Shown: piece by piece, positions 16,006 through 22,150 of the stretch
How positions within the stretch are numbered: the first letter of the stretch is position 1
Layout of the letters: each line of letters begins with the position of its first letter
Assembly (NCBI RefSeq): GCF_027921745.1
Contig: NC_079238.1
Coordinates: 496,001 to 560,000 of the forward strand
Source: Schizosaccharomyces osmophilus
Taxonomy: Eukaryota > Ascomycota > Schizosaccharomycetes > Schizosaccharomycetales > Schizosaccharomycetaceae
Direction: 5' to 3'
Length of the DNA: 64,000 nt
The notes under the pieces: model-generated
Told to the model about the DNA's origin: nothing
Database searches by the model: none
The model's input: only the letters and a program-made list of their open reading frames with translations
Translations under genes and position numbers: made by a program

Positions 16006-19000
16006 TTATAAACTCATCTTAAAAGATGCTATTTCAAAGGCTTTCATTTCAATCTGCAAATGGTATCCATCTTCATCTTTTTGTAAATTGACTTGCGCTA
16101 TATCCTCTTCCAAAATGTTACACTTGGTAGCGCTCTTAACTTCACAGCTTTTTAATGTCAATCTGCATCTTGACTTGCCTCCCAGGGACTCGTAAAGACG
16201 AAGAATTATCGCGTTCTCGTCCTCAGCTTTCTTGATGTTGCTAACTATTATGTTTTCATCACCTTCCACTCGAACAAAATCTAAAGCTTCCATGTTTGTC
16301 TGTATAGAGTTTTTGTTGACGAATCTAAAGAGACTATTAAGCTTGTAAGCAGCTCGCACTACGTTAGGCCCAAGTGCACCTTTGTGAGGCAAGATTGAAT
16401 AGCGGAAGTAATGCTTGCCCATGTCCGCATGAGCATCTGGTTGTTTTGGAGACCTTAACAATGAGAGTCGCATTAAGTTTCCATGCGTAGAGAATCCATA
16501 CTTGCAATCATTCAATATTGAGACACCATAATTGTGCTCGGAATAATCTGCAAACTTGTGATGGCACACTTCAAATTTCGCAACGTCCCAGGATGTGTTA
16601 TAATGCGTCGGTCTGTGTGTGACACCAAATTGAGTCTCGTAGCTAACATAATCTGCATGGATGTCCACGGGAAATTCAACCTTTAAGAATTTGTAGTCTT
16701 CATTCCAGTCGACCTCACAGGCAAAATCTACGCTTAATGCGTCAGCATCATTGTTGTAGCCTGAGAGAGAAATGACCGTTTTGATGCAACTTTTTTCGCT
16801 TATAGGAGTTTCAACAAGTATTGATGCTTTAGCAGGTCCCTGTTCATAGACTTGTGCTTTCCCTTCTGTGAGGATCTTGTACTTATCGAGAGAATAAATC
16901 TCGGTGTCCCAAGCTGGAAAGCTCAATGGGGTATCCTGGAAGATCACATACTGGTTGGCACCAGTTTTGTTAATTCCGGATTTCAAATCCAAAACTTCTC
17001 TGTCATTATTAAAATCATGAATGCTCGTAATTAAACCAGCTTTGGAAATCCGAACTAAAAGCTTATCTGTGCGAAGTACTAAGCAACCGTTCGACTCATA
17101 GGCTCGGGCTGGATGCTTAACATGATTTTCGGAACGTACCAAAATACTTGGGTTATCAACTGATTCATAAAAGGGCAGCGGAGTAGTTTGCGCACTTTCG
17201 TCCACGACACCTCCCACGTTCCAAGGTAAGGTGGTTAGAAGGTAATCAGGTAAGATAGTATGGTTTGTGATTTGTCTGAATCCTAACTGATCTAATACGG
17301 TTTTGATCAAACGTTCCGATGATTGGAAAACGTTGTGCATCATGGGTATTGCGTCGTTATAAACCATTTCAATACAGGATCCAGGAAGAACATCGTGAAA
17401 TTGACATAACAAAGTTGTTTTCCATAGCTCATTGATTTCTTGGACGGGATATTTGAATCCAGGAATGCGAGCAAAAGCTAACGTTGCAAAATATTCCAAA
17501 TCGTGGAGTGAAAATTCTGCTTTTCTCATGGCCGATTTAATTTCTGACTGTGTTGTATAAGTTCCTCGGTGGAATTCAAGATACAATTCGCCAACCCACG
17601 ACGGTAGTTTTTCTGCATTACTCGTACGTTTGAATACTCCATCAAAAAAGTCATCAACCGAATTTCCAAGCTTGACGTCAGGTAATTCTCCCACTGTATT
17701 AGCTACTCCCTTGCATCGGCGAAGCTTTTCAAGCATTTCAGGTGTAGGTCCACCACCTCCGTCACCAATTCCAAATACCAGTAGACCTGCTTGATCATTC
17801 TCCAAGTTTTTGTGTTGAGAAACTGAATTCATTATGTCGGAAACATTAGTGTCTGCCGTGTAAGTATCCGCAGGTGGCATATGACACAGGACTTGAGATC
17901 CATCTAGTGCAACCCAGTTAAAGGTATTATGAGGGAAAGAATTAATGTTACTCCAAGAAAGCTTTTGTGTCAAGAACCTGTCCATTCCTGCAAGACGACA
18001 AATTTGTGGTATTTGACTGGAATAGCCAAATGTGTCGGGCAACCAGAAAGTGTCGCAGCGCACATCGAATTCATCTTTAAAGAAACGTTGGCCAAAAAGA
18101 AATTGACGAATAAGAGATTCACCACAAGGAAGGTTCGTATCATGTTCTACCCAACTTCCACCGACCGGCAAGAACTGCCGGGTCTTTACGTGTTTTTTCA
18201 GTCTTTCGTAAGTTTCCGGATGATCTTGTTTTAACCATTCGTACTGCTGAGCTTGGGAGCAGACAAAACGATATTCTGGGTATCTATCCAGCAAATCTAA
18301 TTGCGTGGTCCAAGACCTCACAATTTTGCGCCTTGTCTCTGCAAAAGGCCAAAGCCAGGCTGTATCAATATGACAGTGGCCTACTGCGTATACTTTTGTT
18401 TGGTTGGGATTTGTTTCCGTAACGTGTTCAGAATCGATATTCTCTCCAAGGTAAAGCTTTGCAAGGGATCTACAATGCTCAATAGTGGAAGCGTCTTCAG
18501 GGTGAAATGCATTCATTATTTCATGACATAATTGCCTTGCTCTGAACTTTTGCCAAGACTTTGATGGGAATTCCTTGGCACTTTGCTGTATTATCATGAA
18601 ATCACAGCGCAAAGCTCGAGCTGGCAGATTAGGAACCATCAGATCTGCCTTTCTCAACATGAAATGCCGGTTGGGATCAGGTGGAGCAATTTGGTCTGAA
18701 CCTCCACAACCAAACATTCCATTGCAGGCCATTTCAATATAAAATATATGGACATTGTGATCCTTCTGCCAACTTTTAGGAAGGATGTATTCGGTTCTTT
18801 CAGAGCTGCTGAACGCTTGGACTGGTTGATAATCTTCCGAGTAGACCAAGCCTTCGTTACCACAATCCCAGTCGAATATGACTTCCTTATAATCTGACCA
18901 GGCATCGGGAATGCGAATTTCGACTTGGACCCAAAAGGTAGACCAACTGGGACCGAATGCATCCCCCTTGTAGGCAACTTGTTCAAAATTTACTTTTCCA

Positions 19001-19245
19001 ATGATTTCACGAACGCTAGGTCGTTTTAGATCAGGAACGGGATAGACTCGTAAATTCACATATCCCTTTGTAGTGTCTTTTTCCACATCTTTAATAGAGT
19101 TGTCAATGCGGTGTATATCATATAACTGAGGAAGATTGAACTTTTTGTATTCTCCTTCGGAAAGGAATTGATCAAGATGGTTTTCGTAAATGGAGTCGAC
19201 CTGCTTTGCAACGGGTGTATTGTTGTACACTGGATAACAACTCAT
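16006..19245 (-). CDS. ams1: Alpha-mannosidase, GH38, vacuolar-type (Ams1)
   Basis: 1,079 residues, essentially the S. pombe Ams1 length. It trims alpha-mannose from free oligosaccharides; in fission yeast Ams1 reaches the vacuole through a selective autophagy-related (Nbr1) route rather than the secretory path, consistent with no signal peptide here. The zinc site is in [12 protein letters not shown], with His292 and Asp294 as ligands; the nucleophile is Asp404 in [10 protein letters not shown]. The central helical domain and long beta-rich C-terminal half are uninterrupted. The gene converges with the dihydrodiol-dehydrogenase-like gene (176 bases) and is divergent from the pheromone gene across about 1.6 kb. 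Confidence 0.96.
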
Positions 19246-20835
19246 ACTTCAGGCTTTCTTTTGAAAAATAAATAATAGAGTGCCAAGTGATCGAAAAATA
19301 ATCGAGTTGTAAGGCGGAAAAATTACACTAGGATTCAATCAGCACTGTAGAAGTTCAATTGTGGGAGGATAAAAGCAAGAGAAGTGTTTTCTTAATCAAT
19401 TGTATTTATAATGGACTGCATGTATTTGAATGTATTGTGAATTTGGTTTAATATAGCCTTTGGAACGAGGAATTCATCCTTTAAATCAACCACGTAAATA
19501 ATCGTCATCGGTAGGTTTTTATCTTGGGGCTGCGTTATTTATCAGGTAGAAAGGTCCTTGATGATGGTGAAATAAACATTAGAAAATTACTTCTATGAAA
19601 TTCTTTCCTTAGAAACCAACTTTGCTGATCTGATAACGTTTGAATTTCAAAGTATGCATCAAGTATCAAGAGTAGACTTGGTCCATTTGCCGTCTTGCTC
19701 TAGTACTATTGCATAGAGTGTACAATTTCAAATTCTTTTTGGTAAATTAGATATGAGTAAGGTTGAACCGATCGAGTCTTGCATGGACAAGTAAACAAAA
19801 TCTCGTTAAGTCGTCATCACCAAATCAAAGGCTCTTTGGAATAAAGTTTTAGTGTGTTTTCAATAGATTAGATTCTCGTGTATTTGTAGAGCATATTTGA
19901 AGGAAATTTTCAGTAAAATTGGTGCCTTCCATAGTAGACGTTGATGGCTTAACTAAACACTTACCTGAGGCCTTCAAGAAAAAAGAGGTATTGCAAATGA
20001 AGGCATTTTAGGGAAACATTTTTTTAAGTTTTTTGTATGTCCATTCATTTATATGAATGTAAACGATGAAAACTGTACTTGTGAAGAAAATAAATCTTTG
20101 TTATTCAGATCGATTCCATTCCGAACTCAAAGGTTCCTAGAACAGAGAGGATGTCGTTTATGTTTTAATTCTTAAATTAAGATGGTTTTCTGTGTTTTCC
20201 ATTTATTCCCTTTCGAAAGTTATGTCACTTGGGAAGTAACGCACCTGATGCGCATTGTCAGAGTTTCATATTTTTGACGACTCCCTCTAAAAATCATGAG
20301 CTTCAAAAACTTCGTATTGGAAAACTTGGAAATCAAATAATCTACCATTTTCATGATCTTTTCGCTGTACCGGATTTTTGAATTCTCTGCACATACTTAT
20401 GCCACAAAGGGTATGTATCGTTTGTGAATTTATAATTTAACTATGCAGAAAAAATAAGGATTTTGTTGGATTTGAACTCCAAGTTGCTTTTCGCTACGAT
20501 CTTTTATCTTTTTACATACGTTTGTGAGTCACAAAAAGGGTTGCATTGTGAGTATTCAAAAAATACTGTTCTTTTAAAAGGATTCCTATTCATTTTTGAC
20601 TTTGCTATTGTTTGAGATCCGATGACGAACATTCTTTGACGTTTTGTACAATGGAACGCTTTGTCTGAGAAGAATTGAATTGAAACAAAGAGAGCCGGGA
20701 CAGCTAAGAATGTTACTTTCACACATTATATAAATAAGAGTTTTTTGAATGGAATTCCCCATCCAAAATTGGATTTTCTGTCTCAAAACTTGTTTTCACT
20801 ATTTGACCAAAACAACTTTTTAGATCATCTGCAAT
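19246..20835. other. Intergenic: ams1 promoter (left) and M-factor promoter (right)
   Basis: 1.6 kb AT-rich spacer between divergent starts with no frame above chance. The right-hand 200 bases carry mating-type motifs described separately; a weaker TR-box-like ATCTTTGTTA lies at 20094-20103. Confidence 0.5.
20648..20692. promoter_or_regulatory. M-specific promoter motifs: ACAATG and a near TR-box
   Basis: ACAATG (20648-20653) resembles the M-box bound by Mat1-Mc, and AAACAAAGAG (20683-20692) is a reverse-strand TR-box with one mismatch to TTCTTTGTTY, the Ste11 site. They lie 144-188 bases before the pheromone start. A TR-box beside an M-box is the known layout of S. pombe M-cell-specific promoters. 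Confidence 0.5.
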
Positions 20836-21040
20836 ATGGATTCTATGAAAAGCAACACCAACACATCTAGCTCTTCTCTTGTGAACAATGCTCCCTCTAA
20901 GCCTACTGTCACTACCAGTGGAGCTCAATGGTATCAACCCAAACCTCCTGGAATGTGGTATGTGGAACTTATACCTTTGCTTAACTAAGCTTGAGAAGAA
21001 CGGTAAACTAACCTTTAACTTTTTTAGTGTTATTTCTTGA
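20836..21040 (+). CDS. mfm2: M-factor mating pheromone precursor (two exons)
   Basis: Exon 1 is 20836-20957, intron 20958-21027 (70 bases; GTATGT donor, CTAAC branch at 21008-21012, TAG acceptor), exon 2 21028-21040. The product is 44 residues, the length I recall for S. pombe Mfm2, and starts with MDS as that protein does. The C-terminus reads …WYQPKPPGMCVIS: CVIS is a CAAX box, so Cys41 should be farnesylated, VIS removed and the cysteine carboxyl-methylated. The intron splits the Cys41 codon (TG|T); unspliced, the frame reads GMW and ends without a CAAX box. Mature peptide by analogy: YQPKPPGMC (S. pombe YTPKVPYMC). The Ser/Thr/Asn-rich prepart lacks a signal peptide, as expected for ABC-exported lipopeptide pheromones. 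The position between ams1 and the phosphoglycerate-mutase-like gene matches S. pombe mfm2. Confidence 0.93.
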
Positions 21041-21481
21041 TACTTCTTTGAACTTTTTTTTTTGATGATTCGATTTGGTTCTATGATTTGAGGTTTTGCT
21101 AGTTGGCAATTGCACAATGTTTCCAGGCATCCCATTCCAATTCCATATCGACAACGATTCAATTGTTTTGCTTTCGTAATATTTATGATATTTATATTAA
21201 TACTATTGTTATTTTCCAAGGTTTTTTTCATACAAAGTAATGCATACTTACCTTTTACAGACCTTACTATACAGTAGTAGTAATTGTCGTTGTTTTATTA
21301 GTAGTTGCATCATATAGGGTATTATCATTATTAAAAAAAAATATCCTTAACTAGGTTTATTAAAATCATACAGAGTTCATTGGGATCATCATAAAATCAT
21401 TGAGAGTGAATGAAGTCCTAGGGACTTGGGACTTGGGACCAAAACAATTATAAAGATGAATGTTTCCTAGAGCTGCTGTAT
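21041..21481. terminator. Convergent 3' region after the M-factor gene
   Basis: AT-rich; contains a 7-base triplicate (GGGACTT, 21422-21440 region) near the end of the neighbouring minus-strand gene. The M-factor 3' UTR should end here. No other gene is seen. Confidence 0.45.
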
Positions 21482-22150
21482 CTACTTCTCTTCAAGTGGA
21501 GTAAATCTCCAAGTCTTGTCGCTGTAGTAATGAAAAGTGTAGCCCCCATGCTGGCAAGCACTAAACGAATTCTTGTCCTTAGGTGTAGCATTCAAAGTTT
21601 CTCCGGGCTTTTGGAAACCGCAGAAGAGACGGATACAGACACCATGGGTTACGACTGCAAATGATTTTTGAGGCACCTTTGCAAAATATTCAGCCAACTG
21701 CTCTGTCTTTTTCACACTGGTCTCAAAGTCAGCTTTGTGGATTCCTTCCTTTTTGGGGTACAGCTTGTCTTCATAGCAGGCTGAAAAGTCGTATCTAGGA
21801 AATTGCTGTTCCAATTCCGCAACAGGTGTTCCAACGTTACATTCCCAATCTCCGCAATCCTGCAAAGTGGGAAGGATTTTTACGGGAAGATGATCTTCAA
21901 ATATGTAATCTTGGAAAGCAATTGTCATTGTTTCAAGAGCCCGGCGTAAAGGAGAGCAGAATATAATTTCTATAGGAAGTTTTGCATCTCGAAGCTGAAC
22001 TCGAGCCTGTTCAGCTTGCTTAATACCTTCCTTATTCAACATGGGATCGTGATCTCGATGTACACCCTCCTCATCGGTCTTGTGGTCCACAAGTCCATGA
22101 CGTAAAAAGTAAATAGTCTTCTTGTCGTCCTGTCTAGTAGCAAAAGCCAT
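21482..22150 (-). CDS. Histidine phosphatase / phosphoglycerate-mutase-family protein
   Basis: 222 residues of the histidine phosphatase superfamily. The catalytic motif FLRHGLVDHK is at 15-24, with Arg17, His18 and Gly19; the second catalytic His is in VVTHGVCIRLF, in normal order. The size and the lack of the full glycolytic PGM insertions suggest a small cytosolic phosphatase (Det1/SHB17-like group in fungi) rather than the glycolytic enzyme. Substrate unknown. It matches the S. pombe gene recalled as SPAC513.02, neighbour of mfm2. Confidence 0.9.
   Translation of the reverse strand: MAFATRQDDKKTIYFLRHGLVDHKTDEEGVHRDHDPMLNKEGIKQAEQARVQLRDAKLPIEIIFCSPLRRALETMTIAFQDYIFEDHLPVKILPTLQDCGDWECNVGTPVAELEQQFPRYDFSACYEDKLYPKKEGIHKADFETSVKKTEQLAEYFAKVPQKSFAVVTHGVCIRLFCGFQKPGETLNATPKDKNSFSACQHGGYTFHYYSDKTWRFTPLEEK

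What the first reader, a model, noticed from the sequence alone, without database searches (positions are those of the whole stretch)
20836..21040. Hidden M-factor pheromone gene whose intron splits the CAAX cysteine codon
Seen directly: a 41-codon frame ends in PKPPGM-TG, then GTATGT, CTAAC and TTTTTTAG, then TGTTATTTCTTGA. Splicing restores Cys-Val-Ile-Ser-stop, a farnesylation box; unspliced RNA encodes GMWYVE and cannot be prenylated. The gene is too short for ordinary ORF calling, and a larger antisense frame hides it. The consequence is that lipid modification and export of the pheromone depend on removal of one intron; regulated splicing here would gate pheromone output. Splicing-gated production is inference.
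Basis: partly seen in the sequence, partly recalled or inferred. Interest (0 to 1): 0.8.

Follow-up and report, generated by a model that had tools for sequence, protein, structure and literature searches.

The report
Fission yeast M-factor pheromone gene
This is a genuine but tiny fission-yeast mating-pheromone gene whose single intron cuts the codon for the cysteine that receives the lipid anchor; every copy found in this yeast's genome has that intron, and at least one published gene model overlooked it.

Summary
Window 20836-21040 (+) is an M-factor precursor gene (mfm) of a fission yeast; contig sizes and an exact protein match point to Schizosaccharomyces osmophilus. Exon 1 is 20836-20957, intron 20958-21027 (70 nt; GTATGT, CTAAC, TTTTAG), exon 2 21028-21040. 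Spliced: 44 aa ending YQPKPPGM-CVIS, Pfam M-factor at 76 bits (cut-off 25). Unspliced: 50 aa without a CAAX box. Neighbours (alpha-mannosidase, phosphoglycerate-mutase-like) suggest the S. pombe mfm2 position. Six mfm loci were found: five intact, all with the intron in the same Cys codon, and one pseudogene that keeps it. S. cryophilus SPOG_01334 reads as the same intron translated. The public S. osmophilus model SOMG_00058 is the intron-retained form of paralogues. So the intron is shared, and its neglect hides the CAAX box. Splicing-gated pheromone output is unsupported: this copy has the genome's preferred donor and a CTAAC branch site, and known control is transcriptional; no RNA reads were examined. 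Side result: all five intact copies encode YQPKPPGMC, against YQPKPPAMC in the sister species S. octosporus.

The parts
20648..20653 (+). ACAATG, candidate Mat1-Mc M-box, 188 nt upstream of the ATG
   Evidence: M-box described in PMC1693924 passages; which letters are the M-box I read off the listed S. pombe sequences and recall, as the underlining is not held
20684..20690 (+). AACAAAG, candidate weak Ste11 box, 152 nt upstream of the ATG
   Evidence: motif AACAAAG from PMC1693924 passages
20727..20732 (+). TATATA, TATA-like element
20836..20957 (+). exon 1 of the M-factor precursor gene (prosequence and YQPKPPGM plus TG of the Cys codon)
20932..20957 (+). codons YQPKPPGM of the predicted mature peptide plus TG of its Cys codon
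   Evidence: peptide boundary by analogy with S. octosporus YQPKPPAMC (PMC6342294 passage)
20958..21027 (+). 70-nt phase-2 intron inside the Cys codon; donor GTATGT
21008..21012 (+). CTAAC branch-site consensus; branch A 16 nt from the intron end
21028..21040 (+). exon 2, 13 nt: T of the Cys codon, Val, Ile, Ser, stop (CAAX box CVIS)
16006..19245 (-). neighbour: GH38 alpha-mannosidase (Ams1-like), probable counterpart of S. pombe SPAC513.05
   Evidence: Pfam; SPAC513.05 labelled alpha-mannosidase
21482..22150 (-). neighbour: phosphoglycerate-mutase/His_Phos_1 protein, probable counterpart of S. pombe SPAC513.02
   Evidence: that SPAC513.02 is a mutase-like protein is recalled
20719..21231 (-). 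antisense ORF (170 aa), judged a chance frame

Best explanation
An ordinary, functional-looking M-factor precursor gene of S. osmophilus, the probable positional counterpart of S. pombe mfm2 and one of five intact redundant copies. The pre-mRNA carries one short intron inside the Cys codon of the CAAX box. The spliceosome removes it, most likely constitutively; this restores CVIS, and the precursor is farnesylated, trimmed, methylated and exported as YQPKPPGMC(farnesyl)-OMe. Output is set mainly by transcription in M cells (Ste11 with Mat1-Mc). Shown: gene, intron signals, the same intron position in all six loci found, candidate promoter boxes, CAAX on joining. Inferred: splicing itself, processing, export and transcriptional control, from S. 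pombe and from conservation.
For: PF03855: 76.2 bits for the spliced form; 63.5 bits for the unspliced form, which matches only up to residue 40. Five of five intact loci joined in silico give ...WYQPKPPGMCVI(S/A). Read-through tails differ (WYVELIPLLN, WYGYTFA, WYGNFFF(N/Y)TILY) whereas the exon-2 tail keeps CVI. Public relatives P0009, P0010 and P0011 (S. cryophilus, S. octosporus) end in MCVIA. S. cryophilus P0002 reads MWYE...FFSVIT, as expected if a 69-nt intron in the same codon is translated. All five intact copies have an ACAATGG and an AACAAAG upstream. Neighbours resemble SPAC513.05 and SPAC513.02 around mfm2 = SPAC513.03. The genome encodes one STE3-type receptor match (196 bits) and one ICMT match (103 bits; that family also rings in 5 of 14 control genomes).
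Against: No RNA, proteomic or mating data were examined. The public S. osmophilus annotation has the intron-retained ORF for at least one paralogue (SOMG_00058); its pipeline used vegetative RNA evidence and a visual inspection against cDNA reads, and whether reads supported that model is not known. The gap between M-box and Ste11 box (30 or 42 nt) is longer than the 14-26 bp described for S. pombe.
Confidence: 0.9

Rival explanations
1. Splicing-gated pheromone: removal of the CAAX-splitting intron is regulated by cell type or starvation, so that unspliced, unprenylatable precursor is made in non-mating cells.
For: In all five intact loci the CAAX box exists only after splicing, so a gate would act on all M-factor at once. 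Four of five use GTATGG, a donor with little excess over the reversed pattern (49 against 30, four of the 49 being these genes). A public model of a paralogue is unspliced.
Against: The copy in the window has the preferred GTATGT donor (197 against 34) and CTAAC. Known control is transcriptional (PMC1693924 passages). The annotation pipeline kept ab initio models (keep_preds), so an unspliced model is weak evidence of retention. Paper searches (one search listed 20 of 26) showed no title on regulated mfm splicing; I saw listings and passages only.
Confidence: 0.06
2. The unspliced 50-aa ORF is the real product, as the public model SOMG_00058 of a paralogue implies.
For: SOMG_00058 (P0012) equals letter for letter the unspliced reading of the copies starting at C1:87278 and C1:124042.
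Against: The tails after the donor share only the donor-encoded WY and lack a CAAX box, while exon 2 keeps CVI(A/S/T) in paralogues and relatives. Donor, CTAAC and acceptor persist in six of six loci.
Confidence: 0.03
3. The 170-aa antisense frame is the gene and the sense frame is a by-product.
For: It is the longer ORF, and in the corresponding antisense frame ORFs of 164, 105 and 163 aa occur in L003, L004 and L005, which are near-identical copies.
Against: No Pfam family. In the closest paralogue, L002, the frame is 52 codons stop to stop without a Met. ORFs of 170 aa or more arise about 0.45 times per 64 kb in random order-2 sequence (9 in 20 trials). The sense frame has curated-family homology.
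Confidence: 0.01

Closest known systems
M-factor precursor genes mfm1-mfm3 of S. pombe (Pfam PF03855; mfm2 = SPAC513.03)
   Same: Precursor family, single nonapeptide before the prenylated Cys, redundant copies, M-box plus weak Ste11 box upstream, and for this copy the mannosidase and mutase-like neighbours; S. pombe mfm genes contain introns (PMC6342294 passage).
   Different: Mature peptide YQPKPPGMC instead of YTPKVPYMC. Whether the S. pombe introns sit in the same codon could not be tested: no S. pombe DNA here; Kjaerulff 1994 and Davey 1992 are not held.
So-mfm1 to So-mfm6 of S. octosporus
   Same: Six genes there, six loci found here (five intact, one pseudogene); the copies in a species encode one mature peptide.
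   Different: YQPKPPAMC there, YQPKPPGMC here: residue 7 is Gly in all five intact copies and in the pseudogene remnant.
SPOG_01334 of S. cryophilus OY26
   Same: Same precursor; its 67-aa public sequence reads as a 69-nt intron in the same Cys codon translated (inferred from the protein).
   Different: The spliced form would end AMCVIT; its public name is only 'hypothetical protein'.
a-factor genes of Huntiella (filamentous ascomycetes)
   Same: Farnesyl-type pheromone genes in several copies per genome.
   Different: Stated to lack introns (PMC10182648 passage).

Membership tests
M-factor precursor (PF03855) | match to the curated family above cut-off | tested here: met
   76.2 bits, cut-off 25, residues 1-43
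M-factor precursor (PF03855) | short precursor ending in Cys-aliphatic-aliphatic-X | tested here: met
   44 aa ending CVIS after in-silico splicing; 5 of 5 intact loci end CVIS or CVIA
M-factor precursor (PF03855) | redundant genes in one genome encode the same mature peptide | tested here: met
   YQPKPPGMC in 5 of 5 intact loci; the sixth locus found is a pseudogene
M-factor precursor (PF03855) | M-specific promoter: M-box 14-26 bp upstream of a weak Ste11 box | tested here: inconclusive
   One ACAATGG and one AACAAAG(A/G)G in the 260 nt upstream of 5 of 5 intact loci, but gaps of 30, 42, 30, 30, 30 nt; neither motif upstream of the pseudogene
M-factor precursor (PF03855) | farnesylation, methylation and export as an active pheromone | not testable with these tools
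   needs mass spectrometry and mating assays
S. pombe mfm2 orthologue | same neighbours (SPAC513.05 mannosidase, SPAC513.02) | tested here: met
   GH38 mannosidase and His_Phos_1 neighbours; SPAC513 labels in papers; adjacency in S. pombe is read from systematic numbering and recall, not from its sequence
Intron in the CAAX Cys codon as a family trait | same intron position in paralogues and other species | tested here: met
   6 of 6 loci here; 1 S. cryophilus protein by inference. P0009, P0010 and P0011 do not show whether an intron is present; S. pombe and S. japonicus not tested
Regulated (gated) intron | splicing differs between vegetative and mating cells | not testable with these tools
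   no reads available; vegetative data sets SRR21149830 and SRR21149831 are named in PMC10085805

The most novel reading that the evidence does not exclude
All intact M-factor genes of this species, and perhaps of the genus, share an intron that makes lipidation and export of the pheromone depend on splicing. In four copies the donor is the rare GTATGG while the mfm2-position copy has GTATGT, so splicing could set how much each copy contributes and could couple pheromone output to spliceosome activity on entry into sexual development.
Probability: 0.07. Interest if true: 0.65.

Novelty: new member of a known kind. Interest (0 to 1): 0.3.

Why it matters
It points to a gap in the public annotation of a fission yeast: in the collection searched, pheromone genes are missing or modelled without their CAAX box, so a comparative study of pheromones or of farnesylated proteins could miss them. 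It gives the predicted S. osmophilus M-factor, YQPKPPGMC, with residue 7 different from its sister species in every copy found, at a site where substitutions are depleted in S. pombe mating competitions (PMC13099959 passages). That makes pheromone-based isolation between S. osmophilus and S. octosporus directly testable.

Tried and rejected
Considered and rejected: the unspliced ORF as product; the antisense ORF as gene; a chance CAAX junction. An enumeration of GT-AG pairs found one other that gives a CAAX end (20931 to 21027, donor GTATCA): it would encode ...AQCVIS, which deletes the mature peptide and has a poor donor.

Led nowhere: three original M-factor papers are not held. Papers found under mfm and intron gave at most the statement that S. 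pombe mfm genes have introns. A search for three locus names and the peptide returned 0 papers. A paper on collinear loci of fission yeasts has 0 occurrences of mfm, ams1, M-factor or SPAC513 in its main text. In one search the pattern gave 11 matches with up to 2 mismatches against 7 for the reversed control; the five exact ones and the one-mismatch one are mfm loci, and the five two-mismatch ones (L017-L021) I did not examine. A DNA search with the pseudogene's 5' part found itself and the copy at C1:5.04 Mb only, so no further copy.

Not done: no structure prediction, no dN/dS, no RNA reads, no test of S. pombe or S. japonicus intron position.

Full report
Observation. Joined, it encodes 44 aa ending in PKPPGMCVIS; unspliced it encodes 50 aa ending in PKPPGMWYVELIPLLN. 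The spliced protein matches Pfam PF03855 (M-factor) with 76.2 bits (cut-off 25), the unspliced one with 63.5 bits and only up to residue 40. A scan of the window for any small ATG frame joined over an intron consensus to a CAAX stop returned only this junction (two nested ATGs); 60 random order-2 sequences of the same length returned 1 hit in all.

Where it is. G000 has three contigs, 11,412,266 bases in all; the two whose lengths were printed are 5,565,604 and 3,504,162. The S. osmophilus reference has three large contigs of 5.57, 3.50 and 2.35 Mb (PMC10085805 passage). A public S. osmophilus protein, SOMG_00058, is listed with a contig of 5,565,604 bases and equals the unspliced reading of two paralogues here. 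The window is therefore S. osmophilus, most likely the type strain of that paper, at 496-560 kb of the largest contig.

Family in the genome. Protein and Pfam searches gave five mfm loci and a pattern search a sixth, with one mismatch. They are the window gene; copies whose ATG is at C1:5044644(-), C1:87278(-), C1:124042(-) and C1:5476207(+); and a locus starting near C2:2247012(-). The three copies at 87 kb, 124 kb and 5476 kb are 96-100% identical pairwise over the 250 nt upstream, exon 1 and intron (the 13-nt exon 2 differs by at most one base). The C2 locus has a shifted frame and an in-frame stop and shows neither ACAAT nor AACAAAG in the 260 nt upstream; I call it a pseudogene. All six have an intron after the TG of the Cys codon: lengths 70, 61, 52, 52, 52 and 69 nt, a CTAAC with the branch A 15-16 nt from the intron end, and TAG. 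The five intact genes would be spliced to YQPKPPGMC-VI(S/A). Between the window gene and its nearest paralogue, L002, exon 1 is 89% identical, the intron 76%, the proximal 250 nt upstream 65%, and the outer flanks 36-39%, within the range of 15 unrelated 250-nt pairs (11-40%).

Other species. The protein searches returned 2 and 6 proteins, the window's own ORF among them. S. octosporus P0010 and P0011 and S. cryophilus P0009 end in MCVIA; they do not show where an intron lies. S. cryophilus SPOG_01334 (P0002) reads ...PPAMWYETCIFASQNEAFTKYCMLTFFSVIT: as a translation of exon 1, a 69-nt intron and exon 2, it places the intron in the same codon. Seike et al. 2019 (passages) state that S. pombe mfm genes have introns; the passages seen do not give their position. 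So the intron is shared within S. osmophilus and, by inference, with S. cryophilus.

Hidden gene. In the protein collection searched, the window gene appears only as the window's own ORF (P0001, no source), and no spliced S. osmophilus precursor appeared; SOMG_00058 is a read-through model named 'hypothetical protein'. This absence is limited to that collection and its word-based search. The antisense frame is not what hides the gene; short length and a 13-nt second exon are the likelier cause (inference). The published annotation used ab initio models with keep_preds, vegetative transcripts and a visual inspection against cDNA reads, so the unspliced model does not by itself prove intron retention, but I could not check the reads.

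Context. The neighbours are an Ams1-like GH38 mannosidase and a His_Phos_1 protein, the latter 94% identical to an S. octosporus phosphoglycerate mutase family protein. S. pombe SPAC513.05 is labelled alpha-mannosidase, mfm2 is SPAC513.03, and SPAC513.02 is listed under energy production or carbohydrate metabolism (that it is a phosphoglycerate-mutase relative is recalled). I take the window gene as the probable mfm2 counterpart. Upstream lie ACAATG (20648) and AACAAAG (20684); the same pair occurs in all five intact copies, with longer gaps than in S. pombe. In S. pombe such pairs bind Mat1-Mc and Ste11 (PMC1693924 passages). The genome also holds one STE3-type receptor match and one ICMT methyltransferase match (the ICMT family also rings in 5 of 14 control genomes).

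Is splicing a gate? Patterns GTATGX + 25-55 nt + CTAAC + 4-16 nt + TAG were counted genome-wide against the same pattern read backwards: X=T 197 against 34, A 62 against 42, C 54 against 20, G 49 against 30 (a few matches share a donor). T is preferred. The window gene has T; the four other intact copies have G and make up 4 of the 49 G matches. Nothing marks the window intron as weak. The paralogues' less usual donors are the only sequence hint that splicing might matter quantitatively, and they point away from the copy the finding is about. The simplest account is a constitutive intron in a transcriptionally controlled gene.

Side result. The mature sequence is YQPKPPGMC in all five intact copies, and Gly stands at residue 7 also in the pseudogene, against Ala in S. 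octosporus (P0010, P0011) and S. cryophilus (P0002, P0009). S. pombe making only the S. octosporus M-factor is sterile, and variants at V5, P6, Y7 and M8 are depleted in competition. The main text of the S. osmophilus genome paper has 0 occurrences of mfm, M-factor or pheromone, and that of the 2026 M-factor paper 0 of osmophilus. One search listed 3 papers with S. osmophilus and pheromone; I looked into one, where the word occurs only in references. Within these searches and I did not find this peptide in print.

Verdict. Real, functional-looking, a new member of a known gene family; interest moderate to low for the gene, with a useful annotation correction. The gating idea stays possible but unlikely (0.06-0.07).

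Noticed in passing
L016, G000:C2:2246887-2246906 (-) and about 106 nt upstream of it: Sixth mfm locus: a pseudogene with a shifted frame and an in-frame stop in the mature peptide and neither M-box nor Ste11 box in the 260 nt upstream, yet with donor, CTAAC, acceptor and CVIA exon preserved.
   Followed up: yes
L003, L004, L005 (C1 at 87 kb, 124 kb and 5476 kb): Three near-identical mfm copies 87-124 kb from the contig ends, sharing gene and proximal promoter; L004 differs from the other two in the outer flanks, as expected from recent duplication or gene conversion.
   Followed up: partly
window 20648-20690 and upstream of L002-L005: M-box to Ste11-box start-to-start distance is 36, 48, 36, 36, 36 nt (about 3.5 or 4.5 helical turns), against the 1.5 or 2.5 turns reported in S. 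pombe: longer, but still half-integral. Not tested statistically.
   Followed up: no
window 20932-20957 and the other mfm copies: Residue 7 of the mature M-factor is Gly in every S. osmophilus copy found, Ala in S. octosporus and S. cryophilus; a candidate species-specific pheromone change.
   Followed up: partly
public records SOMG_00058 and SPOG_01334: Both read as intron-retained models of mfm genes that lack the CAAX box and are named hypothetical protein.
   Followed up: yes
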